Part shown: positions 136 through 41,451 of the stretch, in pieces
Layout of the letters: each line of letters starts with the position of its first letter
How positions within the stretch are numbered: position 1 is the first letter of the stretch
From: Saccoglossus kowalevskii
Lineage: Eukaryota > Hemichordata > Enteropneusta > Harrimaniidae
Assembly (NCBI RefSeq): GCF_000003605.2
Contig: NW_003149770.1
Coordinates: forward strand, 59,391-101,076
Length of the DNA stretch: 41,686 nucleotides
Direction of reading: 5' to 3'
Translations under genes and position numbers: made by a program
Notes under the pieces: model-generated
Told to the model about the DNA's origin: nothing
The model's database searches: none
What the model saw: the letters and a program-made list of their open reading frames with translations, nothing else

Positions 136-1348
136 TATTTTAAAATAGACAAATATTTAGCCATTACAATTTTTGTAATTGCTATATCTGACAAATCAAT
201 ATAGAATGCCGGGTTTTCACGATGAATATGTGTGTGGCTGACGTTGAGGGCCTACCTACCAGCATAAATCATTTGAGTCGAGTGTTGGCTACACAAATTA
301 TTATTTTGAGATTGAGGGTCACTATCCATAATTTAGAACATAACAACCAAATAAATAATATATCAGCAAATGCGCGTGTATGTTTTTTTCTTCTTTTTTT
401 CAGTGAGTTTACGCTGAGATGGTTTTCAAATGCGGAAAAGAATCAGCTGTGATTGTCCATCGGTGACGCATGGCTGTCAGTGGGCAGTGTTGTACAGGTC
501 AGATTTAAGTCCGACATAGGTGTATGTTCCCTCACAAAATACGGGTTAAACATCCACGATTAAAGGGGTGATATTCGAGTAATTTATTATTGGTTTTCAT
601 GGCAAAAACGTTTTTTTTTTTTATATCTCAAAATTATATTCGGCTACACATGGTACAATAATTATATTGTGGTTTTGTGGTGGGCACTTATAGTGATCAC
701 AAATATTTAAATCTATTTTGCAGACTATTTATTTATTTTGGACTTTTATTATGGATTTTATGGTCATTATTCAAAACATGTATATTTTTGCATTTTGTTT
801 TTCAGGCTTGTTTTCTCCAAAACAATAAATCATACTTTGTGGAAAGAGCACGAAAATTTGAAGACTTGTGATTAATTTGTTTTAACTATTTATTAGTTCG
901 AATGCCCACAAATGCATTCGAACGAGTGGTATAATGGCGTGTGCGCTGTCACAACAACCCGCATAAACGATGCTGCCACAGATTCCCTAAAAAATCAATA
1001 ATACGCTACTCACACAAAGCAAAATATGGAGATTGGTGCCATTTCTGATTTTTGCTATATAAAATCGGAATTTCTAACAGAAACAACATTTAAGGCGAAT
1101 GTCCTTTTGTATTTATTGTCATGGATGTACAGTAACATACGTGTCTTTGTTTAAGTAACGCTCGTGCCGGCAGTATGCAAATTGATTATGTTCCTACATT
1201 ACAATCCCACCGCTGTTGTTTTCAGGACACCCGTACTAGGAATGTTATGCAATCGTTTAATTATTGCACTTCGCATTTTATCGCCCCCTGCCACGTCACT
1301 GTTACGAACGCATACCAAAGACAAATTATTATTAAGATATTACTTTAC
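136..1348. other. No gene seen; probable intron of the K2P channel gene
   Basis: This stretch is AT-rich with scattered stops in every frame. The channel exon at 1349-1772 reads leftward and ends in a splice donor, so this should be the start of its first coding intron. I looked for the next channel exon, which should open with an acceptor followed by the second and third bases of a Gly codon and then Tyr-Gly, and did not find one. The open frames here show no family I recognise. Confidence 0.5.
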
Positions 1349-1772
1349 CGATTGTGCTAATGACCGTCAGACAGAAAAAGCAAGACGAGAAATAATTCCA
1401 GCGGTCATGATTGCTTCGGCCATCCTTGTACAACCACGCATCTTTCTGCACCTCCTTGCGAAATATTGTCAGCTCTTTCATGGCAAACTCGTGCCAATCG
1501 CTCTGCGTCGTGTTGGCAGCGCTGCTCCATAGCTTATTCGCTATTATGATTTCCTTTTCTGTCATATTTGGCCGAACGTCGACCTCTTTGCTGTGTCCCT
1601 CGACGTGATGGAACATGTATCCACCTACCATGACGTATGCGATGGTTGCTATGAACAGAATCGTCGTATTGCGGACTTTCTTTCGAAAAATGTTAAATCG
1701 ACACGCCACATCCCGGACCTTCACAGCACTGGAACGCCGTCGTTTAGCGATGTCCGATACGACCACACTCAT
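1349..1772 (-). CDS. Two-pore-domain K+ channel (KCNK/TWK family), first coding exon
   Basis: This is the N-terminal 141 codons plus one base of a two-pore-domain potassium leak channel, a dimeric plasma-membrane protein that sets resting potential. Residues 1-35 are a basic cytoplasmic N terminus (KRRR at 10-13, RKK at 30-32). Residues 36-57 are hydrophobic M1. Residues 60-124 form the extracellular cap, with N-glycosylation sequons at N69-M-T and N87-T-T. Residues 125-142 are pore helix 1 and the start of the selectivity filter: W125, FF at 132-133 and TVISTIG at 136-142. The exon stops inside the Gly codon of the expected TIGYG filter at a GTAAAG donor (phase 1), a place where an intron makes sense. 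The ATG at 1772 is the first after an in-frame TAG at 1812-1814. M2, pore 2 and M3-M4 lie off the left edge. The FFCLTVISTIG filter recalls TRESK-like or invertebrate TWK members; the subfamily is not certain. Confidence 0.88.
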
Positions 1773-1814
1773 GGCGTTGTTATCGGCGTTACACTGGTGG
1801 GCAGCGATTTTCTA

Positions 1815-14987: not shown

Positions 14988-16478
14988 CCCCTGCATGGTA
15001 TAGGGGCGTGCATCTTAGCAACATAGAATGTTCTGTGATGTAGCTCCGCCACGGGAATAAAATTTAAGAAGTGCATCAGTTATTTTGGCTACAAAAATAT
15101 GACCTATATGGCACATTCAGTTGGTATAAGCTCCAATACTACACCATAAATACTGTTAGGAAGTTTATGAGCTAACAGATAATTTTGAGGCTACCCCCAT
15201 GAATGAAATTATTTTCTTACGATTCTCAATTTTAAATATTCAAACGTCACAGCTGTCGCGTAGCATCTGTTGAATAAAATGTCAATTTGTTTACAAAAAA
15301 TGTGAATGTGTGTTTCAAAACTGCCACTTTAAGTCTAATCTTGTTTTACACAGTTTAAAATGTGAAAAAATTAACATATTACACAGTGGTGTTATGTAAC
15401 AATCCCAAGGTGTGATATCTACCCCTTTAAAACCCTCTTCAGTTTTTGCAGTTACCAAACAGGAATTTCAAGGTACATGAGGTGACAGACAACAGATTAT
15501 TGTAAGCCTTGATACCATTCAGTCGATTTGGGATTAATTGAATACATGTGCTTTTACAGGATTACCACACCATCTGTGACATCAGGGATTAGCTTATCCA
15601 AAAAATAAAAAGTACAGAAATATAAAGTTAAGCGCCCGACTCTGATAGTTGCATGTCACAGACAATGTTTCATCGTGCCTTTCTTGTGTTCAAATAAAAA
15701 TGTCTACATTCTAAGAACCATTGTGCGGGTAACGCCGGGTATATGCAAATGAATTCAAGAGATCGTGTGAGCACAGTGCTAAATACTTGGCTAAATATGC
15801 AAGTATATGTTAGGATAGTCTTAATCTGTCTGCCACAGATGTACAGTGTTAAATTCTTTGTGTGGTTTCATTGGTTACCTCATTTGCATACATTGCATAC
15901 ACAAGTTCGTTCCAGATCAATGTGTGCACATGCAAGAATGAACATTTTTAGCTAATAGTTACGGCTACAAAATAACACAATTATGAGTAAGGAATCTCAC
16001 AAAAACTGAAAATTATTTATTAGTCTCTATGTCTGCTTACCACTTGCTGAACATCGCAAAGATTTTGGAAGACATTTAGAATTTTCTCTCTGATTATAGC
16101 AGAAGTACTGCCTTTCATCTGTAAACCAACTTTAACACTTTGAGAGCATACTACAAAATTGATTTTGTATAGTCTGCTTTTTCTCACCTGAAATCTTGAT
16201 AAAAATCGCTGAAAACCTAAACGTAATATCTGAAACTGTCTCCATGGTACATGTACATATAATGATGAATTTCGGGAGGGGGGGGGGGGGACTTTTCAAT
16301 ACTCAATAGGTTAATCATAGTTCAGATTGTAATTGTATACACAATTAGTTAATATCAATATTGTTTATACTAAACTTCCTTGGTTTTCTTGGGACAAGTT
16401 CTAATAATTTATTCATACATTTACCCTAGTTAATTAATAACTCGTTTTTTTTTTTTTTACCATTTTTGTAACCTACAG
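14988..16478. other. No gene seen; probable intron of the RFX-type gene
   Basis: No coding exon could be recognised. The RFX-type exon at 16479 opens with an acceptor and needs an upstream exon ending in two bases of a codon, so at least the right part should be intron. TG|GT donor candidates here (for example near 15119) are in AT-rich sequence with stops close upstream, and I do not call them. Confidence 0.4.
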
Positions 16479-17373
16479 GATTCTACAAAACTACACCCTA
16501 TGTCGGGGGTCGACCGTGACAATTGACGAGATGTTAGAGCATTACATGTGTGAACATAAGTGTACTAACGTGAGATCAACTAGAGTGAATTTTGGATACG
16601 CCATCAATACGCTATGGTCAAGAGACGGGGTGTATGGAAAACGAATTCGTCTACCAGGTAGGAACCGAAGACTGAAAAAATATTACAACATCAAGCGTAT
16701 ACCGTCAGCGAATATGGCAGTCGTTGACAAATTGTCTTGGGAAGATGTTAAGAACTACTCGCCTCCCGGATGGATAAAAGTTCCATCAGATGTCGAAATC
16801 AGAATAACTTGGGTGATGCTAGATAGTCGAATAGACCTTCTGGTGAATGGTGCCAGAATTTTGAGAGAGGTGACTTTTACAAAATCAGGTAGCTTCATCC
16901 ATGGCGAGGCCAAGGTCGGGGTGGCATCTGCACCCCTGTTGAAGGCTAACGTACCATGGAATCCTGGCTGCGTCAAAATTGGTACGTTGAAGGCAGTATT
17001 TGACCTTGTCGCAAATGGCAATCCATGTATTGGAGACATCAAATGCAATGTCTCTTGCGAAGCATTATGCAAAGTTGAAGTTTGGGGGAACCGATTAAAT
17101 GGGATGAATTCTGCCCGGCGATGGCGCAGTAAAAATTGCCACATCTTGTCATGTAAAAACATCTGTCCAAGTTGCCAGCATGCTACAAGGAGTGATAAGT
17201 TTGGTGCTGTGAACACGTCAATCGTGTCCCGCGTTCAAGGATACACCGTAGCTGGAGTGGAAGTGCTACTGAATAAGCTAAGGCAAAAGCGTGCACAGAT
17301 AGGACAGAATGAGTTGATCACTGAATTAAAGGAGCAGAGACCTGAAAATGTCATATGTATAATTGAAGACTAA
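16479..17373 (+). CDS. RFX-type winged-helix domain protein, terminal exon
   Basis: The exon follows a 15-T tract and an ACCTACAG acceptor. It contributes the last base of a split codon and then 297 codons to TAA at 17371-17373. The start ILQNYTLCRGSTVTIDEMLE, a central VNFGYAINTLW and then KRIRLPGRNRRLKKYYNI follow the order of the RFX DNA-binding winged helix (NYE..G..., FGK.IR..F, RRLG.RG..KYHYYGI). If the split codon is TG|G, the exon opens with the Trp that begins that domain. The rest (about residues 85-297 of the exon) is unassigned. It includes a Cys/His cluster (CHILSCKNICPSCQH) that could bind a metal, and an acidic end (ICIIED). A GTG at 16516 is not a start: the frame is open back to the acceptor. 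Upstream exons were not found. This is likely a nuclear DNA-binding protein; the domain call is by eye and divergent from canonical RFX. Confidence 0.68.
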
Positions 17374-20693: not shown

Positions 20694-20788
20694 TTATTTT
20701 CCATTCAGTAAATGTTTCCCAGCAAAGCTGGACATTCTTCTTCCCCTAGCACCTGCACCTTCTGAGGAATCTCCGCCAAACATAACGT
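20694..20788 (-). CDS. Ankyrin-death gene, exon 11 (residues 462-492, C-terminal tail)
   Basis: The acceptor CCTATTTCAG completes a split Asp codon, and 30 codons follow to TAA 20694-20696. The tail is Gly/Ser-rich and then basic: [20 protein letters not shown], ending KHLLNGK. The phase match with exon 10 and the immediate stop support it, but there is no domain to confirm it. Confidence 0.75.
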
Positions 20789-23700
20789 CTGAAATAGGAA
20801 GCCAATATGAAAACTTGTATTTATCACATAATTGAAATCAACATCTTAGAGTAATTGTGATATTTTTACTGAAATGCCTATGACCAAACATTTTAAAAAG
20901 AGAACACGCAAATTGTTCACTTTGATTATATGGAGAAAACTTTGGCATCTAAGTCATGTTAATGTTAACAAAATCTATTCCATAACAATTTTTCTGACAA
21001 TAGTTTCAATTTCCAAACCACCAGTTATTAAACTCAGGTGAAATACAAATGTGTAACATTGTACATTTAATAAGAAAAATAAGATTAAAAGTTGACCAAA
21101 TATCTGACAACCAATTTATTCCAAAAAAGATATCAATTTCATTTACTGTAAACCGCTTTAATTTTCATGAAATTTAACGAGTCAGTGAAAATTTGTAGTA
21201 GTAAAAATTAAAAGGTTCACAATACCTCCTTTTCCAATTTTCTCTATTTTATGCATGGCATCGTCCACTTCCTGTAAATCCGGCCATGCTGATTGGTCAT
21301 CCAACCAGATCTTCAACACGTGTACGCAACTCTTTTTGTATCTGTCATCGGGTTCCTCATCTTTGTACATCTCTTCTATCTTGTCAATATCCTCCTCTGA
21401 AAAGAACAGTGCCAGAGCTAATCTCTTCCACCGTGTTCCGGGGCCGACTCGCTCAGCATATTTCACAAAAAGTTCTTTTATTAGGTACTCCTACGAAAAT
21501 GAAGAAATTAATAATTTGATTACTGGTATATTTTTAATAACATTTAAATCGCAGTGGTCCTCGCGCAATGCGTGTTCAAATTCTAAATAAACAATGTATT
21601 TTACACGCGTTATGTACGTTACTATGAGTCCCATATCGAACAGGACGCGGCGCGACAACTGCCTCCCTTTAAATATACATGTATGCCTGCAGGTTAGAAT
21701 ACAGTCACAAACATGAATGTAAATTTTGATCAGTCTACAGCTGTGTATGGAGTACTGAATTTCACTTCTTAGAGTCTATAGTCACACCGAAGGATTATTG
21801 ATTAAATCAGGTCTTTGTATATTACCAGGACCTGGGTTTGTTTCAGTATCACCACTATAATTCCCATCAAAATGTAGGCCTGACCCCCCGCTACAGTTTC
21901 CACTGAGATTTGTAATGGTACGAACCATCTATCACTGATTCAGATCAAGGTCATGACATCACTACAAACCACAGCATTATAATCTAAGCTAATTATTTTT
22001 TCTGGGCATGCTCAGTTGTTCTCTCAGTGGTGTTGGGCTCTTTTGTGCATTGATCTATTAATTAGGTACCCATATCTCATGCATGCATGCACAACAACCA
22101 CCATCTTTAAGAACACAATGGATATGTACAATCAGATATCTGATGAAAATGAAAAACTTACCCGACATCGTTTCATTATCATTGCAGCTAATTTTGTATT
22201 TTTTCTCTCTTTTGCTATAGCATATGCTGTCTTGCGCTACAATTAAATAAAAAGATGAATTGATTATCACGCCATTTGCAGTCAGTTATATATCGCCTAT
22301 ATGACATAAATCTCAGAGTAAACAGGAATTAACATGAAACATTTTTTAGCACTAATTTGCAGGCAACTCTGTCGAGAAATAAATGTTGTTTTCTGAGAAT
22401 ATTATTTTGTTCATTCAGCTATGAGATGAAAACTACAACTGAGAAGTATATTGAGATTCGTTTCTCTGATGTGACAAAGCGCTTCATTAGTGATTAAAGT
22501 GAACACAATCTTGTCAGCTGTTCGCAATCAACAAATAGAATATTGTTGTGGCTTTTAGCATCCATATTGACAATATTGTTTTGATTGTCACAGAAATCAA
22601 GTTTACTGAACCTGTATGAGCTTTCCAGATTAGTGTTTGCATGGTTTGTTCTACGTGTAGATGCCATTGGAGGAATATCGCCATGGCTTGCATAAACTGA
22701 TGATTTATTTATTCATTCTATGTGACCAGCTCGTTTCTAATCCTCTCCTCCAATCATATCACACCAATATTAAATCCAGCAACGGATTGATACATATTTT
22801 TTAGTAAGAAAAGTAACATGCTAAATAAATCACTCACCTCGGCGTCCTGGGCATACACCTGCACTTTCTTCTTCAGTAAAAGTTTAACAATTGACACATG
22901 ACCACAGAATGTAGCGCAGTGTAACGGTGTACAACTCTCCCATGAATTGTTGAATATAGAACCACACAACTTATCTACTTTCTAATAAAATAATAGAAAT
23001 ACATGATTCTTGATCAAACAATTTTGCAAAGAATTGACTGCATTTACAAGAGGATTGAAAAATGATGATTGAACTCGGCAACATTTTCACTGTACACAAT
23101 TTTCATCTGACTGCCTAAAAAAGGCTTCTAAGGAAATTAAAGTTCAGGTTCTGATGGAATACTTAGAATGCTACACTGATCAGGGTTTTCAAAATCTACA
23201 ATAATGGTCAAAGGTTCCAATCAATTCAGAAGTTAGAAACTACATTATGCTAGTCCTGGTTTTGCATACAAAATTATCACCAGAGTGAATCTACCACAAT
23301 GAGAGAAATTTTAGTTTCCATGGAAACACATATAGTGTAAGGGAGACTTTTTTATTAAAGCATTTTGTCAATCACTAATTGTAAACTAATCACTGTGACA
23401 AACTAATCCTAGCTACTGAGAAAATAAAAACATGTCTGTGCATATAAATATGAATTGACGAAATACTTACCACATCAGCTTTGGCATCAGCATCAACTTT
23501 ACCTTGGAATAAAGCCTGTACAACAGCAAGATGTCCCCTGATACATGCAAGATGCAGAGCTGTGCAACCATACTGAAAAAAAAAAAAAAAAGCAATTAAC
23601 AGCGCCCTCCTGAGTTACTTTTCAATTTTTATTTTGTTTTTATTGAATCAATTTTTAATGCAATTACATACTGATCTACACTATTCTGGAATTCAGTGTC

Positions 23701-26700
23701 AAAGCCACAATATGATTAGTAGTGCTCAACAAATACTGTTTTTAAAAGCGCTAAAATTTTGCACACTTTAAATCTAACTTAGTTGTTTCGATATACCCAA
23801 AAAACACAATTTAATGCTCGGAGAGTCCAATTCAATAAACATGGAAAAACCAGTAAAGAAGTATTTTTAATATAAGTTTAATGTTGCATTCTGAGGTCAT
23901 GAATTGGAATTAATATGATCAAAACGGATAGTCTAAAGAAACTTGGTGAATCAATACATGTTGAAACACTGCAAAATCATCAGAAAATAAAATTCAAATG
24001 CACAAATATGAAGCTGAAACAAATAAATTTGTTTTGGGTTCCCATGAAGGTGTGTAGTTGCTTGGCTACCATGTGTGTGGAGAGGGATTGAATCAACGTA
24101 GATTCACTTGGGTCAGCAGAAATATGCAGTGTTAGACAATTTTCTTTCTGTACCAGCTACAGTTTTGTACGGCAAATTGATTCTGTATTTGTAGAAATCC
24201 AACACTACCATGAAAGCTCACAAACTTTTCATTGAATATAGAAAATGTGTTTTACATTCATACACTCAAAATAAAAAGGGACAAAATATAATTTATATCC
24301 CTACAGGGATTTTTTTTAAACAAGGGAACAGAGCACAGCGCCCTCATGCCATGGCCATGCACCCCCTTACCCTAGGGAGCAGATTTTCTGGCAACCATAA
24401 AATTCTGATTGACCAGGGATCACATGTGGCCACAGTCTTCAACTGTGACCTGTCTGATAGTAGTTTTGGCCCTAAGGAAGCCATAGAATGCTCTATTTTA
24501 ACTTAGAATTATCAAAAACTCCAAACCCGGGTAGGGAGAATTTATCTCCCCAACTTGGTGGCACCACTAAATTGCAGTGCTCTCTCTTGCAGTTTTTTTT
24601 CTAGAAAAGACTCTGTCTCTACATGTATGTTATCTATATGTGGCTTTGTAAAATCTTTCTGGGGAAAACATACAAGCATGCATGTATATTCAACTTACGA
24701 AAAACTGATACAAATAGACCCAGGGATGAATTGGTTGTTAAATTTACCTTCCCTTCTATCGCATGTGCATTCAGTAGTGTGGCAACCACGGAACATGCCC
24801 AGAAACTCAAAACTCGTCAAATTACTTACATTACATGCTTCGCACATTTAATTTGTGCAAATACAGACCATAAAATATTTCACATAATCACAAAGTGCAA
24901 ATTTTAAGTAAAGGTAAGATAACTAACCTCTGACAAATCTACCGCATTGACGTCGACGCCAGCTTTGACCAATGACAAGACCACACCACTGTGTCCCCAG
25001 TACGTGGCACACATCAACGGAGTACAGTTACGCCATGGATTCTGGACGGATGATCCCCATATCATTCCAACTAAAATATCAGCCTCAGCATTAATGTCTG
25101 CTCCAGCTTTTATCAACAGATCAACCACATTCTGGTGACCCTTCAGTGCAGCTAGGTGGAGTGGAGTTCTACCAAGCTACAGATGAATAAAAAATTACAA
25201 GGTAAACAGAAAATATCCATAGGTCTACATTTTATACAGTAATTGTACATAGGAGAAAGAAAAACAGAAAAAAAGTCTTTTGTATACATCAAAAAATTAC
25301 TTGAAAATACATATAATCCCATCAAATCACAGTTTAAAAAATAAAATGATTCTAAATATTATGGAAAGTTATATATACTTATATAACATTTCATCAAAAA
25401 TGTGTAGTGAACAAAAAACGAAAACATTGCATTTAATGTGGTAAAACAGACAGTGTAATAATATATATAGATATTTGGAGACTTTCTGTTAATATATATA
25501 TATACTTAAATTTATAGCATCACTACACATTTGTATCAAACTATTATCTTTGTCCTGTTTTTACGTTCGATTTCATGCATAATATAACAGATTTCATTGC
25601 ATATTGTCAACAAATAACACTTATTACGTAATGATTTTCCATTACCATTATAGTAATTTTTGTTTTAATAAAGCGAAGACACTGAATTTTCTAGTGTCTT
25701 TGGTTTAAACTCTTCTGAAAATTAAGTCTTATGAAAAAGTGAATTGGACAAAAGTTAGACTTATTAATGAATTCATGAGGTTTGAAATTGTGTGAAAGTC
25801 CACACATGCAAACAAACAAATAGCTATGATCATATTTTATGAATATGTTTCGTTTCTCAAAGTAGCGGTAAATTTTTCTCACCACGGTGTCTTTGATATT
25901 GACATTGATCTTGGCTTTCAGTAAGACATCAACCACGCCGGTATGGCCCCAATCACATGCACAATGTAGTGGTGTCAACCCTTTCCATGGATTCTGGTAC
26001 ACTGCTCCGGACTTTTTACCCATGATCTACAGCAAAGATATACCGGGTATATAACAACAACTACTATTTAGTCCAACATACAACGATTTTATTTAGCAAT
26101 GTTGATTATTTTTTCTGTTACATAACGAGTACAGTCGAACCTCGATTATCCAAACCAAGTGGGCGGGGGAAAATTAGTTTGGATACTGTAGTGGAGTTAA
26201 TTATTCACTGGGTTTTAATTTTGCTAATTTTGCTTACTGGAAAATGGGCTAAATTAAAACCCAGTGAATATGTAAAATTTAGCATGGAACACATTATCTA
26301 AATGATAAAACCGTGAATTTAAAATCCACTGAATATGCCTGAAATGGTAAATCAACAAAATTTAAACCCAGTGAAAATTAGTCATTTTACAGTAACTGAT
26401 TCCAACCTTGGAAACAAACATGTACGCAGAAAATAAACACAATTGCCTAAATATTGCTTGCTGTATTTTATTTACACACCAATCGTCATGTAATGTCGAT
26501 AGTGTGATTGTTTGTAATTACATACATGTATGTGATTAAATCTTGGTACAGTCAAATCTGCATCAGTGACCACCTTGATATAAAGACTACCTGTCCATAG
26601 TGATCACCTTGATATAAAGACTACCTGTCCATAGTGATCACCTTGATATAAAGACTACCTGTCCATAGTGACCACCTTGATATAAAGACTACCTGTCCAT

Positions 26701-29700
26701 AGTGACCACCTTGATATAAAGACTACCTGTCCATAGTGACCACCTTTATATTAAGACCACCTGCCCATAGTGACCACCTTTATATAAAGACAACATGCTT
26801 ATAGTGACCACCTTTATATAAAGACTACCTGTCCATAGTGACCACCTTTATATAAAAACTACCTGTCCATAGTGACCACCTTTATATAAAAACTACCTGT
26901 CCATAGTGACTACCTTGATATAAAGACTACCTGTCCATAGTGACCACCTTGATATAAAGACTACCTGTCCATAGTGACCACCTTGATATAAAGACAACAT
27001 GCTTATAGTGACCACCTTTATATAAAGACTACCTGTCCATAGTGACCACCTTTATATAAAAACTACCTGTCCATAGTGACCACCTTGATATAAAGACTAC
27101 CTGTCCATAGTGACCACCTTGATATAAAGACTACCTGTCCATAGTGACCACCTTGATATAAAGACTACCTGTCCATAGTGACCACCTTTATATTAAGACC
27201 ACCTGCCCATAGTGACCACCTTTATATAAAGACAACATGCTTATAGTGACCACCTTTATATAAAGACTACCTGTCCATAGTGACCACCTTTATATAAAGA
27301 CTAACTGTCCATAGTGACCACCTTTATATAAAGACTACCTGTCCATAGTGATCACATTGTTATAAAGACTACCTGTCCATAGTGATCACATTGTTATAAA
27401 GACTACCTGTCCATAGTGATCACATTGTTATAAAGACTACCTGTCCATAGTGATCACATTGTTATAAAGACTACCTGTCCATAGTGACCACCTTTATATA
27501 GACCACCTTCCCATAGTGACCACCTTTATATAAAGACTACCTGTCCATAGTGACCACCTTTATATAAAGACCACCTTCCCATAGTGAACATTTTTATATA
27601 AAGACCATCTGCTCAAACCTGTGTTTCCTGTTGGAAACTGCAGTGATTTTCATCATAGAGCATTTCATGTAACACTGACAGCCATTTTGACTCTGGTGAG
27701 TCAATTTAAAATGAAATATCATCAAATTCAAGACTCCTAAATTGAAATTAGTACCCAATGAATATTTCCAGGCATTCAAAATTCAGTCATGAAAAAATCC
27801 TGCATAGAGAAGGTGTTCTTATCTATCTTATATCCTGCATATTCTAAATAAGGCAAGGCATATCTTGTGTAGCAGTAAAGGGCACCACATGTGGTAGAGC
27901 AGGGAAATGTTTTCTGTTTTCAGAGGATTTTTTGTCGATCCAAATAAACATTTAATAATGTATAGAAAAGGATCGTCTGATAATTGTTAAATACTGAACT
28001 TTCATCTAGCTGTGTTGAGGTGTTAAATAATCTTAATTAAAAAAGATTTAATTGCACCACCACATAATTTTTCCTATTTTCCCCAGGATGCGAGGCAAAA
28101 CCTTTTATTTGTGAGCGATCAACAAATACATGTATTCATGAGACTATCAAATGTTGGCTTAGAGTGAGGGGCAGAATTTATATACTAGTATGTTCATTTG
28201 AAATTTCATGATATTTTTTTAAGGTTTACAACATATAATCAACTCATGATCACTGCGTGCTTAATTAATTTACTTTAAGTTGTACGTGTTTGCAAACTTC
28301 CCAGGACAAATTAACTGAACCAGGTTCATTTAATGCATCAACATAAAGCAACCTTGGTATGTGAAAACAACTTTCAACAAGCAATTTAACATACAATGAA
28401 GAATGGCAAAGAACAACAGAAACTAATACCCCCCCCCCAAAGAGAAAACTCGCCCTGAATGGAAAACATATAAGATCACAAAGGGATCTGTACCATAATA
28501 ATCACCCAAATGGCAGGGTTATTTACATATCCACAATCATTACAATCACAAAAGAAAAAAAAAAGAAAACTGTTCAACAGAGGAGAGTTTAGTGCATACA
28601 ACTAATACCTACCAACAATACAATAGGGCAGTTACTTGAGTGGAGAATTGAGTGTGATTTAAATAACAATAGTGTAACCTGGGGTGAAACTCGTGCCTTT
28701 CATTTCATTACTTGGTTTGACATACATATAGTAATGCAAGTAATACTCACTGATTTATAGTGGTTATTTTCTCAACATAAACACATGTATTTTATAGGTA
28801 AAATGTTCATTCAAGTGGTCAGTAGGAAAACAAAGATAGTGGAATATCTTATAAAAGAGAGCAATTTAGACTTAGACTGCTTATAACTAATTTCACAAGC
28901 CGAGACAAGTTAGTGAAAATTGTAGTATGTTGCAATGTTCAGTGAAAATTTCACTGCGGGTTCTCACAAATGTTATAAGATCTTCAAATGGAAAACATTA
29001 ATAAGGTTTACAGTATTTGCACAAGTACTAATTTTGGAAACTCCGTTGATCAGAAAATTCAATTTTTTGATTTGTATTTTATTTTAAATTTCTCAAAATA
29101 TTTAAAATTTTCGAGGGAAATAAAATAGTTTACTTACATAAAAAAATTATAATTTAAATTAGTCTGGACACTGTTTATATAAAATATATTACATTTCAAG
29201 GCAACAACGAGAATCACTGAATTTTGAAATTAAAAAAAGAATCACCCAAATCTGTGATATATAGAAAAAATTTTCTACATTATCTGAAGGACTAAATACA
29301 GGACAACAGAGGCGCTACAGTTACTAATTATAGTAAAAATGTGCAGTGAAACAATCATGGCTGATGCAGGCAATTTGCTGTTGACAAGGTAGTTTAATTA
29401 ATTGAAACATAGTTTTGCCAACAGGGTTCATGCAATGCAATGCAATGTAATGGGAATATTTAAAAAAAGGTTTTGAACTCAGACATCGACAACTAAGACT
29501 TGTCTATAGAAATTATACTGTATTCTGAATTCATTTAATGTGTATTAATGGCTGTACTTCAAGCCATCCCAATTTGAGACAAAATAATTTTCAGTAAACT
29601 TCACCGGGATTGAGTCGCAATGAATCTGGTGAAATTCACTCTTTGTCAGAAGTTTATTAAAATAATCAAATTGGATAAATTGCTGGAAGGTAAATTTGAC

Positions 29701-32700
29701 AAGTGGTACAGTATACTCACATCGATTGGTACTGCGTTGATTTCCGGTTCTCTTCTCAACAAAACCTCAGCCACAGCTTTGCGCCCGTTAACAGCAGCCA
29801 AGTGTAACGGAGTCCTTCCATACTGTGAAAAACAAGAAATTAACATAAAAACACCAATACAGTCAACATAATTTTTAAATACACAATACAACAGTATTAT
29901 AATTAGTATCGTTGCTTTCTGAAGTGAAAATTCACCTTAGGTCATCGAATTTGTTTACATTTTTTTCAAGCACCGAATGTAAATTTCTGATAACAAATGT
30001 CCCTCATTGACGAGCTCTAGCTTGCTATCCACAGTGACACCATTGCGAATAAGTAGTTTTATTAACAGAACCACATACACATATATTTCATAACGACGAC
30101 AGTGAATGATGAATTCTTGCTCACACACAAAATGTTAAAAATATTTTTGGACACATTCATGCCCAAGAAATTGTCATAAATACATCACTGAAAATTAATA
30201 GTATGTTATCTATAACACAAACAACAACTAATAAATTCAGAAAATGGAGAGGCTCCATTACCTTTGCTTTGTTCTGAAACTTTGGTGGAACTTTCGGTAG
30301 ACAAACTTTGTTTTATATTTCTTTTTTTTATTTCTATCTAGCTGTAAACTATACAGTACATGTAAGGTAAATTTCAGTGACTTAGTAAAAATCAGCCGTG
30401 TAGCCTTGAAAATTACACTTCTATAGTACTAGTTAGGAATTACATTTGTGGAATTAATTTGTCCAAACACAAACAATTTCAGCCAATCACTGAACCATAC
30501 TTGCATCATTTGAAGCACAAATGAAACCAAAATTTATTGTATTTTGGGTCAGCCAAAAAATATGACTTATTTTGACCACTGCAAATATACAGTAATGTAA
30601 AAAGACTCAGTATTGTTTTATTCAAACCACTGTACTGACATATTTATATATTTACAACTTGTAGCGATGCCAAAGTGGATGTTTAAAAGGCGTGAACATT
30701 TAAATCGTTGATCGTTGCCCAGTAACTGACTACGTACCTTATCTCTGGAGTTAACATCAGCATGGATATTTAACAGTGCCTCAGACACGTCTGCATATCC
30801 ATTTTGACAAGCCCAGTGTAAGGGGCTGTAACCGGCCTGTTGATGAATTAATACATGTATGAGGAAGGGGCAGACCATTATTTTTTTAGGAGGGTTGCAA
30901 TCATACAATTTTCAATACAATTTTATACTAGCACCCCCCAAAAAAAAATATTGGTGCACCCCTCTGAATATTACCCAGTTCAGGGTGCCCTCTTATATGA
31001 CTTATTTTGTAGGGTTTTGAGTTAAAAATAAAATCCTTGTAATCAAGTTGGGACAGCTCGTTACTGGGAAGAGAGGTTTTCAAGAATAAATAAAGATCCT
31101 TTACCGGTATATGTGGTTGTATGAAACATCTGAAGTTGTGCACATGGAATATGTTATTTTGTTTACAAAAAAACACAATAATAAAATGTTATTCAAGATC
31201 GCTGTAGGATCATCAATGTAAGATTTTATATTAAGTCAATGACGCAGGAGGGAACTAGCATAATTGGTTGGGTCTTTCGTCTGTAATAAATCAAATAGGC
31301 TTAGAGGAGAAAATGACCTGGTTATAAATCACATTTAATAGCAAGAGGGTTAAGACATTTTAACATTTTCTTAAAAATATGATACATGTAGCTAAGTTTA
31401 AGTACAGTCTTATGAATTTATTAACATTTTGGATTACAGAGCAAGCTGTCAAACCTTGGGGTTGCTACCATTTCAGGCATATTCAGTGGGTTTTAAATTC
31501 ACGGTTTTATCATTTAGATGATGTGTTCTATGCTAAATTTTACATATTCACTAGGTTTTAATTTAGTGCATTTTCCAGCCAGCGAAATAAGCAAAATTAA
31601 AACCCAGTGAGTTTCCTTATTTCAATTTGAATTTCCCCTAGTGAAATATCTGTGAGATTTGACTTGAAGTAAGAGCTACTTATTATTTGTCAATACAATT
31701 ATTATTAGGTTGTAATTTTAAGAGGACTATATCATTATCATATCATTGCATTAGACCATAAAAATTCATAAAGTTTTATAAATTCATCATTTGTTGCAGC
31801 AAAAAAGTTATGAAGGCAGCTACCACTTGTTATTCAATTAACTTCAGGTCAAAGGTTATCATAGCAGCAACAACAGGGTAAAGGTTATATCAAATAGTCA
31901 CCAAGTAAAGCAAAGTTACTCGGCAACCACCACTACCACATAAAGTCACTGTCAAAAAAATAAATCAGGAAGCTGGGTATCAAAAAATCAAGAATAAATT
32001 TTCCTTGATGGATGTTTTCCCGCCAGGTGTTTAGACGATCACATCGTAAGTTATGAACACCCCTACTGGAATTTGTTTTAGCATGTTGTTATAGCAACTA
32101 TTGTGTCAAATCTAAATCGGATATTATATTTATGTCCACAGTCAAAGTCAAGTCCAAATAAGCAGTGCAATGTACACTTGAATACAGAACAATTGTGATT
32201 CTTGTACTGTGTAAAGAGTGTATCATTAAAGGCTGGTGGTCATCGCACTGCACATACAGGAACTAGCATAATTGTTTGCATCAAGAAAAATTTAAATTAG
32301 CAAACTTTGAATTCAACTGATGATAATTTATTCCTAAATTGTTTAATAATTCGTTCTTATTTACAGGGTTGATAAATCACTTTAATATCAACTGTATCGC
32401 TCTGACCTTCCAATTTTACAAATAAAACAAAAAAGGAAAATAATATTTTTCAATCAAGATTATTATTTTCACATATTATAATTAATGAAATATGTCAATA
32501 GAAAGCATCAGCATTTAGAATTAAAAGAATAATAATATCATCACCTTGTCCTTCATATTGGTGTTAGCTCCACAGTCCAATAGTATCTCCACTATTTTGA
32601 TGTGACCGTAGGCGGCTGCTTTGTGTAGTGCAGTTGTGTTGCCCTGCAAGATAAAGTACCAACAGTTGAAAGAACAATAAATTATAATTTAATTACTGTA

Positions 32701-35700
32701 AAATAATTTATTTTCGCTTGGAATTAATTCTCGCTATTGTCGCTGAAGGAATGTGTCAGTGAAAAAAAATCCTGCAAATATATTTTTTTTTTCCTATATT
32801 TTACATTGAACTCGTCAAAAATCAGTGAAAATAAATTCTATAAAAACACCCAAAAAGTCTTCTCAGCGAAAATTAATTCCAGCTAAAATAAAGTATTTAA
32901 CAGTATTGAGAATTTGTATTTTTTTATTTTATGTGCTATAAAGAGAAATCAAAAGAGACGGATTTTTAGAACTTCTGATCATTGGGAAAAAAAACATTTG
33001 TTTTTTGTCGTGTTACTAGAAACATATAAAGAGAAACAATTGCATGTATTTTATACTGAATCACGTCTGCATTTATCATACATGTAAGTGCATACACTAC
33101 TATAATAAACTATACAAAAGTCTGATTCATATAGATTACAAGTATGACAAAATGTCATGGAATTTATGTCAAAATAAAAATTGATATTGCTTCTTATTCA
33201 TAAATGATATACTAACAGAATTTTTTACTCGTAATATTAGACTTGAAAACTATTACAGTTAATAATGTTAAACACTTCCTTCAAAACATAACCTTGAACT
33301 TCAAAGAATTAACAGTAAACATCTGCATGCAACAATATTTGTGTGGGGAAAAAACAGTTGCATTTTACCTGAATTAAATAATTTGATTTGAATGAACAAA
33401 TGGTGGAATAAGCTTTAAATTCTGAGAAAAAAAATCTCGGGAGCAAAAATAATAATAATGGCATTTTAGCATACAATGTATATATCACATTAAACTGCTG
33501 GTGACTGTCATTCTATTTAAATGCAATTCAAAATAGGTCATCACCATGACAACATACGTACACAAGGAAACACTGCAAGACCATTTTAACAATGCAATAA
33601 CAAGTTAATTTAAATGTCTGAAGGCAGGTGTTACAGACTTAATAATTAATAAAGCCCAAATAAGTCAAACAAATCATGTTGATTATAATAATTGCCAACA
33701 GTTATATGTTAATATCATAATAAACTAGAACACTGGAAAATCAGAATCACCATGGCAATAAATATTTCATTACTTTGTTCAGTCTGGCAATTTTAAATGT
33801 AATTGAAATGTAAATGCATGTGCAACTGAAATGAAGCTTAATTTTTTAACTGAATATTTCAATTAATTTGGGGTGTACAATGAACGCACATAGCTGAATT
33901 TAAAAAGCATATTTAACAACCAGTAATTCTGCATTTTTCAAGTAAAATAGTCCAAATATTAATGGATACACTGAGTTAAAAAAATAACATATATATTTGC
34001 TGCTACTGGTAGCGATACGATAAACAGTAATCTTAGATAAGATTTGTATACATTGTATCGTACACTATGGCATTCCACAAATCACTAGAATATTCTTTTT
34101 CTTTATATTATATTTTTATTTAATGTATTCTTTGGTTATTCAATGTAACTTATGTGTGAATGTTTGTTGTGTTGTATTTGCAGAGCCTGTAGTTTAATTC
34201 TGTTGTCCTTGGAATGAATACGAATAAATTATATAAAAAAAAAATGATATTGGGATATAAATCATTATTACACATCTGTCACTGTAATGCCTTAAGTACA
34301 GCATGTCGTAATTTTGCAATATTGCACTGGGCATTTCATCCTACCATATTAGGAAATGAGAATTCAAAATATGGAATGATTACCCGCGTAAGCGTCCTCT
34401 AATAATAAACAAGTCATTGTCAATGACACGTCCCCGTTCCGTTCATATTTGAGTGACATATACATTCAAAGCAGATCATGACCGAAATGCACCTGCATAT
34501 GTACAACACATTGTGCTAAATCTGAACAAAATCCATCCATGCATGACTGAGATCCGGTTCTGGAATTGTGAAAATACGTGATTTTGATGCATTTTCGGCC
34601 TTAAAATGGCCATCATTCCGCTATTGTTAAGCAGATCATGAAACAAATGCACATATCTATTTGTGACATGATGTACCATGTGTGTGTGAAGTTTGAACTT
34701 GATCAATCCAGACATGTCTTGGATACGGATCCAGAACTGAATTCTTTAACAAAATGGCCGCCAGTCGGCTATTTCGAACTTGATCCGAAAAAAAAAATGA
34801 GGTGCATCAAGGTCCTATTATGTTTAATGTATGTACCAAATTTGAATGAAATCCGTCCATGCATAACTGAGATTCGGGTCCGGAATGGTGAAAATGTGCG
34901 ATTTCAATGCATTTTCGGCCTTAAAATGGCCGCTATTCGGCTATCGTTAATCGGATCATGAAAAAAATGCATGTGCATATGTCCCATATAATGTGTGATG
35001 TATGAGTGAAGTTTGAACTTAATCGGTCCATGCATGTTCGAGATACAGGTGATCACGGACGCACGGACGGACGGACGCACACAGGGCAAAACATAAGTCC
35101 CCGTTTTCGGACTGCGTCCGAACGGGGACTAAAAAAAAAACATGACTGCCCCCAGGGTTTGACCGGATTCCACACAAAGAAGTTCGCTAAATATGTTCTA
35201 AACGTTTTCAATTTTGGTATTTCCATGATGCAATCCTTAGGTTATTAAAGGTTACTGCAAAGTATGCACTCAGACAGTACACGGCCACATTGACCTCCGC
35301 TGCGCGTCTGTTGATACTCCCACTGTACTGTCTTTGTGCATAATTTGCAGTATCATCATAATAACCTCATATTACCGTAATTAATATATATCTGACACCA
35401 AAAAAAATGAAATTGACTTGTTCGTAAAACACTGTACGATCACCGTACTCCCTTTGTGCATACTTTGCGGTATTTTTGTGATAAATTCATAATACTTTTT
35501 TTCCAAATAAAAACATTGTTTCTTACATGTTCACTGATGTAGTTGACAGCACAACGGCCACTCTTCATTAAGCGAGCTACCTCATGTGACTTGCCTTCCG
35601 CGGAGGCACTCAATAGTCTCTCATTTATCACAGACTGAAAACAAAAAAAAGAAGTTTTATGTAATATTTATATTATTATTGTATATAGTCATCATTTGAC

Positions 35701-37059
35701 ATATAATAAAATTAACATTGGTTTCATAAGTTCTCAAAATTTGTGCTCCAAATTAAACACCTACAAAAATCACAGAAAACCGCTCAAAGAGCTAAAAGAA
35801 TCTCAAATTTAACTGAGACAAGACAATTACGGTAAGTACATTTTATATTTACATTCTGATTAGAATGGGCAAATAATGAGAGAAAGATGCTTAATTTATA
35901 CTATATTAGCAACAATCTAAATTCTGTAGAAATAGCAGAGATTGGTTTGAAAATAAACAATGCATTTATAATTTGATTTCAAACACAGGGATATCTTGCA
36001 ATCATCAAATTACAGATGCATTTATCGATGTGTGAGATTGCTTTGCTCTGATTACAATATATATCACAGTTGGGCAGGCAATACTTTGGAAGGAAATGCT
36101 GAGAAAACAATACATATACGTACAACATAGATCTCAAGGGTTGATGACATATGTTATACCGAGTACTGCGTGTGTAATGTAAACAGAACAAAAAAAAAAA
36201 AAAAGCCTTTGGCAGTCTACCAATTAACCGACACAAAAAAAGATATCCTGTCATGGTCATTTAGTTGAAATGTGATTCAACACACAATGCGTTGTAGTAT
36301 ATACACACATTGAATGCTCACTAGCAACGCTCTCGGCAGTCGCTCGACTGTGACATACCAATACCGCTAAAGGTGGCCATGCATGTATACTAATGGAAAC
36401 CACGGAAAATCATTCATACAAAACAAATACATGTATGTCTATAGCTGATTTTATAGTTTCTGAGCAGGCCTTGTGTTTTACATTTTTTAAGCACAGTATG
36501 AATGTGAATTAAGAAAACATATATATGTATAGTACCAGAGGTACATTACTTGGGGTTTGCAACTACGGTGACATGATACCAAGATCCCGTTACAATCTCG
36601 CTCTCGCATAAGCGTTCCAACTCAGAAAAATGCGAATGCGCATGCCCGAGGTAACTAGGATACTGGGATGTCCAGGTGGATCAAAATAGCTGCCCAAGAT
36701 ATGACGGATTACGAGAACTATATTTTCTGTACATTTTCGATGTATTACATTTTTCACTACGATAGTGGCAAGAAAAGTTTTATTTTTTCATTACAAACCT
36801 TGAACATTGATATATATCATGTCAGAAGGTCGTAGCCTCAGTCTCGCTATCTACGAGATGAGACTTCAATGGGATCTTGACATGATGTCACCATACAGTA
36901 CTATGCGAGTTGCAAACCCCAAGTAATGTACCTCTGATAGTACATATAGAATCACAGATTTTTCAAGAAAAAGAATGATGTCCTTACCATACTGTGGGAC
37001 TCTCGCAGCGATGCGTTCTTATTCAGATTGGGTCTTTGTAGTATTTTCCCAGTTGTCAT
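20694..37059 (-). CDS. Ankyrin-repeat and death-domain protein, complete, 11 exons, 492 residues (ANKDD1-like)
   Basis: Eleven exons join in one frame: 36988-37059, 35527-35634, 32545-32643, 30738-30836, 29721-29822, 25883-26026, 24928-25176, 23471-23572, 22838-22981, 21226-21490, 20694-20788 (1479 nt including stop). All borders are GT-AG. The ATG at 37059 follows an in-frame TAA at 37075-37077. Residues 1-24 are a polar leader, 25-60 a degenerate first ankyrin repeat, 61-373 eight ankyrin repeats with TPLH-type signatures, 374-450 a death domain with hallmark W394 and W435, and 460-492 a Gly/Ser/Arg tail. Order and length resemble ANKDD1A/B (about 500 residues), probably a cytoplasmic adaptor; partners are unknown. 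Introns between exons 1 and 10 are all phase 0, so exon skipping keeps frame. Repeats 4-9 form three 82-83-residue units. Confidence 0.9.
21226..21490 (-). CDS. Ankyrin-death gene, exon 10 (residues 374-461, death domain)
   Basis: 88 codons plus one base. The core is [20 protein letters not shown], a Cys at 428 and VLKIWL, matching the six-helix death-domain pattern with both conserved Trp. The acceptor ATTTTCGTAG is phase 0 and the donor GGAG|GTATTG is phase 1, the only non-zero phase in the gene. Confidence 0.92.
21544..21672. mobile_element. TTAA-flanked MITE, 121 bp, in intron 9 of the ankyrin-death gene
   Basis: TTAA at 21544-21547 and 21669-21672 bound a sister copy of 5199-5330. Shared blocks: CAATGTATTTTACACGCGTT, and CATATCGAACAGGACGCGGC near the right end. 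The two copies read in the same orientation and differ by scattered substitutions. Confidence 0.82.
22838..22981 (-). CDS. Ankyrin-death gene, exon 9 (residues 326-373, second half of unit 3)
   Basis: 48 codons: extension [16 protein letters not shown] then [24 protein letters not shown] replaces the QNPW of units 1 and 2. The acceptor TTTTATTAG and the donor GAG|GTGAGT are phase 0. It is the last ankyrin repeat before the death domain. Confidence 0.92.
23471..23572 (-). CDS. Ankyrin-death gene, exon 8 (residues 292-325, first half of unit 3)
   Basis: 34 codons: [20 protein letters not shown] then [14 protein letters not shown]. The acceptor follows an extended T tract (TTTTTTTTTCAG) and the donor is GTG|GTAAGT, phase 0. 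Confidence 0.92.
24304..24609. repeat. Dispersed ~306-bp repeat, copy B (uninterrupted), in intron 7 of the ankyrin-death gene
   Basis: Continuous match to the two halves of copy A at 13568-14987, same orientation. It contains a single TTTTAAC at the place where copy A holds the 1.1-kb element, so it is the empty site. An open frame through it (24210-24506) is incidental. Confidence 0.88.
24928..25176 (-). CDS. Ankyrin-death gene, exon 7 (residues 209-291, unit 2 without its internal intron)
   Basis: 83 codons hold both a canonical repeat ([20 protein letters not shown]) and an extended one ([20 protein letters not shown]) that elsewhere lie on separate exons. The acceptor TTCATCTGTAG and the donor GAG|GTTAGT are phase 0. 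The expected intron after NAEAD is absent. Confidence 0.92.
25883..26026 (-). CDS. Ankyrin-death gene, exon 6 (residues 161-208, second half of unit 1)
   Basis: 48 codons: a 15-residue extension [15 protein letters not shown] precedes the repeat [19 protein letters not shown]. The acceptor TTTGCTGTAG and the donor GTG|GTGAGA are phase 0. The NPW extension recurs in exon 7 and, modified, in exon 9. Confidence 0.92.
26130..26190. mobile_element. Pogo/Tigger-like terminal fragment
   Basis: The sequence ACAGTCGAACCTCGATTATC (26132 onward) resembles the ends of pogo-type Tc1/mariner elements in animals. A related string ACAGTCAAATCTGCATCAGT lies at 26549, immediately before the 34-bp minisatellite. 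No transposase is present. Confidence 0.4.
26206..26346 (+). mobile_element. MITE copy in intron 5, partner of 31469-31609
   Basis: It starts CACTGGGTTTTAATTTTGCT, has an internal inverted stretch AAATTAAAACCCAGTGAATA, and ends near CACTGAATATGCCTGAAATG. The reverse complement of 31469-31609 matches along its whole length with few differences. Confidence 0.82.
26562..27612. repeat. 34-bp minisatellite, about 31 units, with a 442-bp higher-order period
   Basis: The unit is CACCTTGATATAAAGACTAC followed by CTGTCCATAGTGAC, repeated head to tail through intron 5 of the ankyrin-death gene. Variant units (TTAAGACCACCTGCCC, then GACAACATGCTT) appear in the same order near 26751 and 27193, exactly 13 units apart. 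The last copies near 27490-27610 are degenerate. It is not CRISPR: there are no unique spacers. Confidence 0.95.
27613..29720. other. Intron 5, left-over part; no gene seen
   Basis: AT-rich intronic DNA between the minisatellite and exon 5, with a poly-C tract near 28430. No exon with a repeat signature, RNA gene or repeat pair is recognised. Confidence 0.45.
29721..29822 (-). CDS. Ankyrin-death gene, exon 5 (residues 127-160, first half of unit 1)
   Basis: 34 codons: [20 protein letters not shown] then [14 protein letters not shown]. The acceptor TTTTTCACAG and the donor GAT|GTGAGT are phase 0. It is the canonical-length member of the first 34+48 pair. Confidence 0.92.
30738..30836 (-). CDS. 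Ankyrin-death gene, exon 4 (residues 94-126, one ankyrin repeat)
   Basis: One 33-residue repeat beginning [20 protein letters not shown] and ending HADVNSRDK. The acceptor CATCAACAG and the donor AAG|GTACGT are phase 0. The conserved intron placement matches exon 3. Confidence 0.92.
31469..31609 (-). mobile_element. MITE copy in intron 3, inverted relative to 26206-26346
   Basis: The reverse complement begins CACTGGGTTTTAATTTTGCT and matches the intron 5 copy to its end (CACTGAATATGCCTGAAATG). With the intron 5 copy it brackets exons 4 and 5. Confidence 0.82.
32545..32643 (-). CDS. Ankyrin-death gene, exon 3 (residues 61-93, one ankyrin repeat)
   Basis: Exactly one 33-residue repeat: [20 protein letters not shown] then [13 protein letters not shown]. 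The acceptor is TTATCTTGCAG and the donor AAG|GTGATG, both phase 0. A TA-flanked MITE ends 50 bp from the acceptor in the preceding intron. Confidence 0.92.
32694..32905. mobile_element. TA-flanked mariner-type MITE, 208 bp, complete, in intron 2
   Basis: Element 32696-32903 with TA on both sides. The left arm CTGTAAAATAATTTATTTTC and the reverse-complemented right arm CTGTTAAATACTTTATTTTA pair for about 45 bp, through GGAATTAATT(C/T)TCGCT. Relatives are at 3528 and 12688. A TA duplication suits Tc1/mariner-type non-autonomous elements. Confidence 0.82.
32906..34412. other. Intron 2, no gene seen
   Basis: Plain AT-rich intron sequence without a recognisable exon or repeat. Confidence 0.45.
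34413..35130 (+). mobile_element. Pearl/Helentron-like element with core repeats, ACGG microsatellite and 3' hairpin
   Basis: The order of parts fits bivalve pearl elements, regarded as Helentron-associated. First comes a short perfect hairpin GTCATTG-T-CAATGAC (34413-34427) and GTCCCCGTTC. Then come four core repeats starting GATC at 34474, 34634, 34782 and 34954, mean period 160 bp. An (ACGG)n tract follows at about 35056-35078, and then a 3' palindrome at 35096-35130 (AGTCCCCGTT and AACGGGGACT arms). Units 1 and 3 are more alike, as are 2 and 4, so the true period is about 310-320 bp. It is non-coding and lies in intron 2 of the ankyrin-death gene. Confidence 0.78.
35239..35497. mobile_element. 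Inverted-repeat element with a duplicated right arm, next to exon 2
   Basis: Left arm AGGTTATTA ... ACTGCAAAGTATGCACTCAG (35239-35281) and right arm (35322-35367, reverse complement TACTGCAAATTATGCACAAA) form a hairpin. A second right-arm-like segment at 35443-35497 (GTACTCCCTTTGTGCATACT, then TTTGCGGTA) repeats it in tandem. The repeat ends about 30 bp from the exon 2 donor. Confidence 0.65.
35527..35634 (-). CDS. Ankyrin-death gene, exon 2 (residues 25-60)
   Basis: The acceptor is TTTTGTTTTCAG and the donor CAT|GTAAGA. It reads [20 protein letters not shown], then RLMKSG and AVNYISEH: a helix-turn-helix of ankyrin shape without the TPLH signature, typical of an N-terminal cap repeat. The internal GTG at 35631 is a Val, not a start. 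Confidence 0.88.
36529..36943. mobile_element. 401-bp inverted-repeat element with 7-bp target duplication, in intron 1
   Basis: Element 36536-36936. The left end CAGAGGTACATTACTTGGGG and the reverse complement of the right end are identical over 29 bp (through TTTGCAACT). More distal matches (GGTGACAT, AAGATCCC) follow after a small indel. Direct repeats ATAGTAC flank it at 36529-36535 and 36937-36943. CAG ends recall hAT, which normally duplicates 8 bp; only 7 match here. Its TACTTGGGG core is shared with the element at 11045. Confidence 0.85.
36988..37059 (-). CDS. Ankyrin-death gene, exon 1 (residues 1-24)
   Basis: It encodes [20 protein letters not shown] plus four more residues and ends AGTATG|GTAAGG, phase 0. 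The polar leader has no signal peptide or membrane segment, which fits an intracellular protein. An inverted-repeat element begins 44 bp past the donor. Confidence 0.85.
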
Positions 37060-40540: not shown

Positions 40541-41451
40541 GCAAAAGCTAGCACTAACAAGTGGATCACTAGTGCTATTAAAAATCAATTAATACGAAAC
40601 ACAAACTATATGCAAAATTTGTAGCTAATAATCATGAGCCACTTGCTGTATCCAAGGATAAGTCATATAGAAATGTCCTTACTAGTGTACTCAGAGCTGC
40701 AAACAAGAATTATTATTCCTAAATTGCATACTCAATACTCAAACCGCCCATTTAAATGATGTCCTGCTATGTTGTGATGCCAACAAACTTTCCATAAATA
40801 ACAAGGAAACGAAATATATCGTTTTTAGTAGCAAGCAAAACTTGCATAATGTGGCGAGCTCAATTAGCATCAGAGGAGAATGTGTTCAGGAAGTCAGGGT
40901 AGTTTCATTTGTTGGTGTTTTAATGGATAAACATCTTAATTGGTCATGTCACATCGATCACATCAACAGTATAATTAGAAACAAGTGTGGCCTATTATTT
41001 AAACTTAGACATGTGATACCCCTTAACATTTTAATATTGCTTTATAATTCCCTTATACAGCCGATATTACTTATGGTCTGGAGGTTTGGGGTAATACATA
41101 TCACTCACACTTAAATACCATTTATATGACCCAGAAAATGTTAGTTTGCGCAATGACGATTAGTTCGTTCACTGAACACTCGGCCCCTTTATTCAAAAAA
41201 ATAAACATCCTTTATATATATAAAATGCACAAATTAGTCACCTGTACCTTCATCCATGACTTAATCCACCATAATTCAAACCTATCCATCATTCATATCA
41301 AACCAGACAACCCCACAATCAAAATCTTGTTGTTGAATATACCCGTACAACTTTTGGCAAGTTTTCGATGACATACTCAGGTGCAAAAATATGGAATAAT
41401 ATCCCGACTACAATTAAATCAATTATCTCACGCAGCTCATTCAAAAAATGA
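40541..41451 (+). pseudogene. Non-LTR retrotransposon (Jockey/CR1-like LINE) ORF2 relic with internal deletion
   Basis: Translated fragments follow LINE ORF2 order. First comes the linker after the endonuclease (KWITSAIKNQLI, then YRNVLTSVLRAANKNYYS). Then the part of the reverse transcriptase after the catalytic palm (ANKLSINNKETKYIVFSSK, FVGVLMDKHLNWSCHIDHI, GLLFKLRHVIPLNIL). Then a C-terminal segment in two further frames (YGLEVWGNTYHSH; RTTFGKFSMTYSGAKIWNNI). The stretch between about 40725 and 40750 replaces the catalytic core, which is missing. At least two frameshifts and several stops make it dead. A TTAA MITE begins at its 3' end. Confidence 0.85.

What the first reader, a model, noticed from the sequence alone, without database searches (positions are those of the whole stretch)
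22838..29822. Three tandem 82-83-residue ankyrin super-repeats built from alternating 34- and 48-codon exons
Exons 5+6, exon 7 and exons 8+9 each encode a canonical repeat followed by a repeat preceded by a 14-15-residue extension carrying (Q/N)N(P/S)W. The lengths 82, 83 and 82 residues and the matching exon borders indicate duplication of a two-exon block, not of single repeats. The conserved NPW insert before every second repeat is not part of the ankyrin consensus and could form a periodic surface on one side of the solenoid. The fold effect is inference.
Basis: partly seen in the sequence, partly recalled or inferred. Interest (0 to 1): 0.72.

Follow-up and report, generated by a model that had tools for sequence, protein, structure and literature searches.

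The report
Duplicated ankyrin repeat pairs, extended loops
An animal-like gene for an ankyrin-repeat protein with a death domain contains what look like three ancient copies of a two-repeat block, each with a related 14-residue extra loop; this is a tidy example of a well-known way that repeat proteins grow, and what the extra loops do is untested.

Summary
A 12-exon minus-strand model with GT-AG introns encodes a 517-residue ankyrin plus death-domain protein. Exons E5+E6, E7 and E8+E9 encode 82, 83 and 82 residues. In each, a canonical repeat is followed by one with a 14-residue N-terminal extension ending QNPW, QNPW or NNSW. The extensions are related (0 of 100,000 shuffles; 26 of 100,000 random 14-mer triples of the same protein). 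The extended repeats are the closest of 56 possible triples, and similarity peaks at distance two. Duplication of a two-repeat block is the best reading but not proven: bootstrap support is 43% for the extended repeats and 5.7% for the canonical ones. It is old: identical residues share codons no more often than expected. Multi-domain duplication is usual in repeat proteins, and single-domain duplication is rare for ankyrins (PMC1553488). The stacked-face idea could not be tested: structure prediction was off, and none of the collections I could search is of animal genomes or proteomes. Overall: a sound, mostly ordinary finding.

The parts
36988..37059 (-). E1, putative first coding exon, 24 codons (weakest exon: no homology; the longest of three ATG-to-GTRAG candidates within 5 kb)
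35527..35634 (-). E2, 36 codons, N-terminal ankyrin-like cap (by eye)
32545..32643 (-). E3, 33 codons, one canonical ankyrin repeat
30738..30836 (-). E4, 33 codons, one canonical ankyrin repeat
29721..29822 (-). E5, unit 1 canonical repeat, 34 codons
   Evidence: alignment
25883..26026 (-). E6, unit 1 extended repeat, 48 codons; the first 14 are the extension ending QNPW (25985-26026)
24928..25176 (-). E7, unit 2 complete in one exon, 83 codons: canonical repeat plus extended repeat; extension ending QNPW at 25033-25074
23471..23572 (-). E8, unit 3 canonical repeat, 34 codons
22838..22981 (-). E9, unit 3 extended repeat, 48 codons; extension ending NNSW (22940-22981)
22162..22236 (-). E10, 25 codons, probable C-terminal ankyrin cap (by eye)
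21226..21490 (-). E11, death domain exon
   Evidence: Pfam Death PF00531, 25.9 bits against cut-off 22.6 when E11+E12 are scanned alone; 22.1 bits, just under it, in the whole protein
20694..20788 (-). E12, C-terminal tail and stop; intron E11/E12 is phase 1

Best explanation
This is the middle of an ankyrin plus death-domain gene, by its introns and domains that of an animal. Long ago one 33/34-codon ankyrin exon gained 14 codons at its 5' edge, which lengthened the finger loop between two repeats. A block of two repeats (one canonical, one extended) was then tandemly duplicated to give three, helped by introns that are phase 0 at every border of the ankyrin part. Unit 2 later lost its inner intron. 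The long fingers should point the same way, every second repeat, along the binding side of the solenoid, and most likely form or widen a docking surface for a partner, while the death domain recruits signalling partners. Shown: exon anatomy, relatedness of the extensions, old age of the duplication. Inferred: order of events, intron loss, the stacked face, the docking role. The confidence given is for the block duplication; for the docking role I would say about 0.45.
For: Anatomy and phases. Extensions related. Extended repeats are the best of 56 triples. The canonical/extended split is the best of 10 three-and-three splits. Similarity peak at distance two. By raw score, units 1 and 2 are closest in canonical repeat, core of the extended repeat, and extension alike (78, 79 and 35, the top score in each set). 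Saturated codons: 11 of 23, 8 of 19 and 4 of 21 identical residues share a codon, against 10.3, 8.2 and 8.7 expected. Ankyrin and death domain. Finger loops make the contacts in ankyrin complexes (PMC8229355, passages). Units of two, three and, most of all, four domains are the usual duplication sizes for ankyrins, single ones rare (PMC1553488, section 8).
Against: Core tree: the three canonical repeats group in only 5.7% of bootstraps and the three extended repeats in 43%; within the extended repeats the tree prefers units 2+3 (54%) to units 1+2 (28%), against the raw scores. The distance-two peak is modest (48 of 720 orderings; 0.084 of 20,000 random orderings with eight repeats). No structure, transcript or orthologue evidence was available. 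Unit 2 is not two exons.
Confidence: 0.7

Rival explanations
1. The array grew by single-repeat duplications or conversions, and only the extended exon was copied into two further places between canonical repeats. No two-repeat block was ever duplicated as one piece.
For: The canonical repeats do not form a clade (5.7%), and E8 does not group with the other two; the tree puts E4 with E5 and E7a in 41% of bootstraps. The second-best triple mixes one canonical and two extended repeats.
Against: Needs two separate insertions that each land to give strict alternation. The canonical/extended split beats the nine other splits. Multi-domain duplication is the usual mode for ankyrins (PMC1553488).
Confidence: 0.2
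2. The extensions are tolerated loops without a shared binding role; what conservation is left reflects common descent and packing of the W on its own repeat. (This rival denies the docking role, not the duplication.)
For: Only G, N and W are invariant in the 14 residues. A W at the same turn occurs in a normally spaced ankyrin. Extensions are 4 to 6 of 14 identical.
Against: With synonymous sites saturated, length 14 and G...N.W kept in 3 of 3 units argues for constraint.
Confidence: 0.4
3. Each unit is a spliceable cassette: because every border is phase 0, isoforms with one, two or three units could be made, and the point of the design is array length.
For: All exons E2 to E10 are phase 0 at both ends.
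Against: Phase-0 symmetry is equally expected from an origin by exon duplication; no transcript data.
Confidence: 0.08
4. The extension in unit 2 derives from, or mimics, a bacterial glycosyltransferase loop: it matches penicillin-binding protein 1B over 18 residues.
For: phmmer E 0.025 for unit 2 alone.
Against: Unit 1 and unit 3 alone list no such match, and the three-unit profile weakens it to E 0.47. A chance match.
Confidence: 0.01

Closest known systems
[quoted passage not shown]
   Same: Ankyrin array followed by a C-terminal death domain and nothing else recognised by Pfam. [quoted passage not shown]
   Different: Orthology was not tested: I found no ANKDD1 sequence to compare with. 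Whether orthologues carry the extensions is unknown.
Tandem duplication of multi-domain units in repeat proteins (Bjorklund, Ekman and Elofsson 2006, PMC1553488)
   Same: Highest similarity at repeat distance two, as in their two-domain units; they report that single-domain duplication is rare for ankyrins (section 8).
   Different: Their dominant unit for ankyrins is four domains, and they counted proteins with ten or more domains. Here the unit is also marked by a shared 14-residue extension and by exon borders.
Ankyrin proteins with lengthened finger loops, natural or engineered (LoopDARPins)
   Same: Extra residues in the loop between repeats, on the side used for binding. A 'Loop Designed Ankyrin Repeat Protein' (4k5c_A) is among the matches of E7; that its loop is lengthened is recalled, not read.
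   Different: Here the extension recurs in every second repeat of the stretch, with kept length and G...N.W. Matches of the extended-repeat profile in the PDB begin at position 13 or later in 57 of the 60 rows shown and at position 7 in three DARPin rows (446 rows in all).
Ankyrin-1/2/3
   Same: Ankyrin array and death domain in one protein; W at the same turn in one repeat of chain 1n11_A.
   Different: 24 repeats, ZU5 and UPA domains and much larger size in ankyrins (recalled); no ZU5 match here.

Membership tests
Ankyrin repeat proteins | Tandem ~33-residue repeats matching the ankyrin profile | tested here: met
   PF00023 E 1.1e-65, 214.3 bits, 8 stretches in the 517-residue model
ANKDD1 | C-terminal death domain after the ankyrin array | tested here: met
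   PF00531 25.9 bits (cut-off 22.6) for E11+E12 alone; 22.1 bits, just under the cut-off, in the whole protein
ANKDD1 | No further domains such as ZU5 or kinase | tested here: met
   Of the 9 families listed for the whole protein only ankyrin-type and Death profiles come near or above their cut-off; Flavin_Reduct, 13.3 bits, is far below
ANKDD1 | Sequence orthology to vertebrate ANKDD1A/B | not testable with these tools
   No animal proteome open to me; no ANKDD1 among the PDB rows shown (3 of 3, 60 of 266)
ANKDD1 | Nine ankyrin repeats (human ANKDD1A, PMC6318269) | tested here: inconclusive
   8 Pfam stretches, plus two weak caps (E2, E10) by eye
Two-domain duplication unit (similarity by repeat distance) | Similarity peak at repeat distance two | tested here: met
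   73.0 at distance two against 59.8 at one for the six repeats, but 48 of 720 orderings reach the difference, so the support is modest
Two-domain duplication unit (similarity by repeat distance) | Both halves of the unit group by unit position in a tree | tested here: not met
   43% for the extended repeats, 5.7% for the canonical repeats in 1000 bootstraps of 30 columns
Periodic finger ridge | Extensions fold and lie on one face | not testable with these tools

The most novel reading that the evidence does not exclude
The three tryptophan-bearing fingers, two repeats apart, form a repeating ridge that binds one elongated or repetitive partner, and mark a conserved invertebrate subclass of ankyrin plus death-domain adaptors whose array grows in steps of one finger per two repeats.
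Probability: 0.15. Interest if true: 0.45.

Novelty: new member of a known kind. Interest (0 to 1): 0.22.

Why it matters
It is a clear case of a repeat protein that probably grew by blocks of two repeats marked by a shared loop and by exon borders, and it gives a concrete, testable guess for where such a protein would bind. If the long fingers prove to be a conserved docking ridge, partners of ankyrin plus death-domain proteins of this kind could be looked for by deleting the fingers.

Tried and rejected
Relatives in prokaryotes and viruses. Genome contigs: 43 stretches matched a pattern, 1 was confirmed by tblastn (L001, residues 35-55). It lies in a 145-codon frame that overlaps a 425-codon frame on the other strand, so I read it as chance; my translation was of another frame. 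Viral contigs: 17 stretches, 1 confirmed, covering residues 1-30 only, a plain repeat (L002). With the start of the extended repeats (26 residues): 20 stretches, 0 confirmed. With the death-domain exon: 14 stretches, 0 confirmed. Metagenome contigs, the phage, plasmid and E. coli collections, and the PHROGs, NCBIfam and PADLOC libraries were not searched.

Origin of the extension from a bacterial loop (PBP1B): rejected, because units 1 and 3 and the profile do not support it.

Special DNA-level conservation of the motif. CAGAATCCATGG is identical in units 1 and 2, and 5 of 6 shared residues in the extension keep their codon against 6 of 17 elsewhere, Fisher p 0.059. Not enough.

Exonisation from the intron as source of the extension: the translated intron ends just upstream of seven exons show nothing like it by eye. 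Partial doubling of a repeat's own tail is another possible source: many ankyrin rows match the unit 1 stretch from residue 3 to 20 on, but the single matches printed are weak (best 6.2 bits). Left open.

Rfam on the whole window: 0 matches. A scan for bacterial-type promoters near E1 says nothing about an animal gene.

Judged by titles and abstract openings, none of the rows listed described this feature; most subscription journals are absent from that library. Passages of PMC7826745 gave nothing used here.

Full report
What is there. Reading the minus strand, twelve exons join into one open frame of 517 codons with GT-AG borders. E1 is the least certain: it is the longest of three ATG-to-donor candidates listed and has no homology. 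Pfam sees an ankyrin array (PF00023 E 1.1e-65, 8 stretches) and a death domain (25.9 bits for the last two exons alone, cut-off 22.6; 22.1 bits in the whole protein); the other profiles near their cut-offs are ankyrin types too. The only three PDB matches of the C-terminal part up to E 1 are chains of ankyrin-1, RIPK1 and FADD (E 0.19 to 0.26), death-domain proteins by recall. The layout fits an ANKDD1-like protein. Orthology was not tested.

The three units. E5+E6 give 34+48 residues, E7 gives 83, and E8+E9 give 34+48. MAFFT aligns them over 83 columns with one gap per shorter unit, near the C-terminal end, and 45-46% identity to unit 2. The canonical exons of these units start three residues before the T of T-P/A-L-H; E6 and E9 start seventeen residues before it, so the extension is 14 residues. 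In all three it has a G at position 7, N at 12 and W at 14. The finding's coordinates, lengths and residue numbers are right; its '14-15' should be 14, and its NPW is NSW in unit 3.

Is it more than chance? Aligned at fixed distance from TPLH, the three extensions score 86 (BLOSUM62 sum of pairs). The best of 100,000 joint shuffles is 58. Without the W column it is 0 of 100,000; with only the ten residues before QNPW/NNSW it is 66 of 100,000. Random 14-mers from the rest of the same protein reach 86 in 26 of 100,000 draws. Pairwise shuffles give 2e-5 (units 1-2), 4e-5 (1-3) and 2.4e-4 (2-3).

Block or single-repeat duplication? For: the canonical/extended split is the best of ten three-and-three splits. 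The extended repeats are the top triple of 56 (75.0; the second, 72.7, mixes E7a with two extended repeats). Similarity peaks at distance two (73.0 against 59.8 for neighbours; 48 of 720 orderings do as well). By raw score units 1 and 2 are the nearest pair in canonical repeat, extended core and extension alike. Against: with 30 residues per repeat the tree is weak, 43% for the extended clade and 5.7% for the canonical one, and among the extended repeats it joins units 2 and 3 (54%) rather than 1 and 2 (28%). So the order in which the units arose is not settled. I hold the block reading at about three to one over copying of the extended exon alone.

Age. At residues identical between extended repeats, codons agree 11 of 23, 8 of 19 and 4 of 21 times, against 10.3, 8.2 and 8.7 expected from the exons' codon usage. 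Synonymous sites look saturated, so the duplications are old, and the kept length and G...N.W suggest constraint. Introns at the same place in units 1 and 3 and none in unit 2 are most simply one loss (inference).

Where the extension sits. phmmer lays its last eight or nine residues, without gaps, on the normal inter-repeat loop of ankyrins ([18 protein letters not shown]; GSPHSPAWNGYTPLHIA with a W at the same place). These single matches are weak, 3.5 to 6.2 bits. They suggest that the extra length lies in the finger loop, the part that makes contacts in ankyrin complexes (PMC8229355, passages seen). Fingers two repeats apart point the same way in an ankyrin stack (established geometry, recalled), so three long fingers on one side is a fair inference, not a result.

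Known or new. Multi-domain duplication is the common mode of repeat expansion; for ankyrins single-domain duplication is rare and units of four dominate over two and three (PMC1553488, section 8 read). Long finger loops are known in natural and engineered ankyrins (recalled). In the PDB the profile of the extended repeats matches from position 13 or later in 57 of the 60 rows shown and from position 7 in three DARPin rows (446 rows in all); with the 26-residue profile the only rows that begin before position 11 are three of PBP1B (60 of 87 rows seen), a chance match. So I saw no solved ankyrin with this extension. What might be new is the alternation with a kept motif; with no animal proteomes at hand I cannot say how widespread it is. 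I file it as a new member of a known kind.

A side thread on function. Four places match L-x5-D/E-V/I-N (residues 114, 147, 229, 277), a pattern I loosened from memory of the FIH hydroxylation consensus; the passages I saw give LxxxxxDVH for histidine sites, at positions analogous to the asparagine ones (PMC3569879). Human ANKDD1A binds FIH1 through its ankyrin part (PMC6318269, passages). The motif is close to the general ankyrin consensus, so this is a lead only.

Noticed in passing
window 26565-27605: 34-base tandem array, 30.7 copies, 92% matches, inside the 3694-base intron between E5 and E6.
   Followed up: no
window 1335-1811 minus strand: Open frame with a weak ion-channel match (PF07885, 19.5 bits, cut-off 22.5); by eye like a two-pore potassium channel exon.
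   Followed up: partly
window 16441-17373 plus strand: Uninterrupted 310-codon open frame (stop to stop); the 289-residue part 16504-17370 that was scanned has no Pfam match at E 0.01.
   Followed up: partly
window 40686-41111 plus strand: 142-codon frame that by eye resembles the end of a LINE reverse transcriptase; no Pfam match at E 0.01.
   Followed up: partly
window 24997-25074 minus strand: The unit 2 extension matches penicillin-binding protein 1B over 18 residues ([18 protein letters not shown] against LLVGMVKGASIYNPWRNP, E 0.025); not listed for units 1 and 3, taken as chance.
   Followed up: yes
protein residues 114, 147, 229, 277: Four L-x5-D/E-V/I-N stretches like FIH hydroxylation sites, two of them (147 and 229) in the canonical repeats right before an extension.
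   Followed up: partly
window 2-135: 25-base tandem array, 5.4 copies, at the very edge of the window.
   Followed up: no
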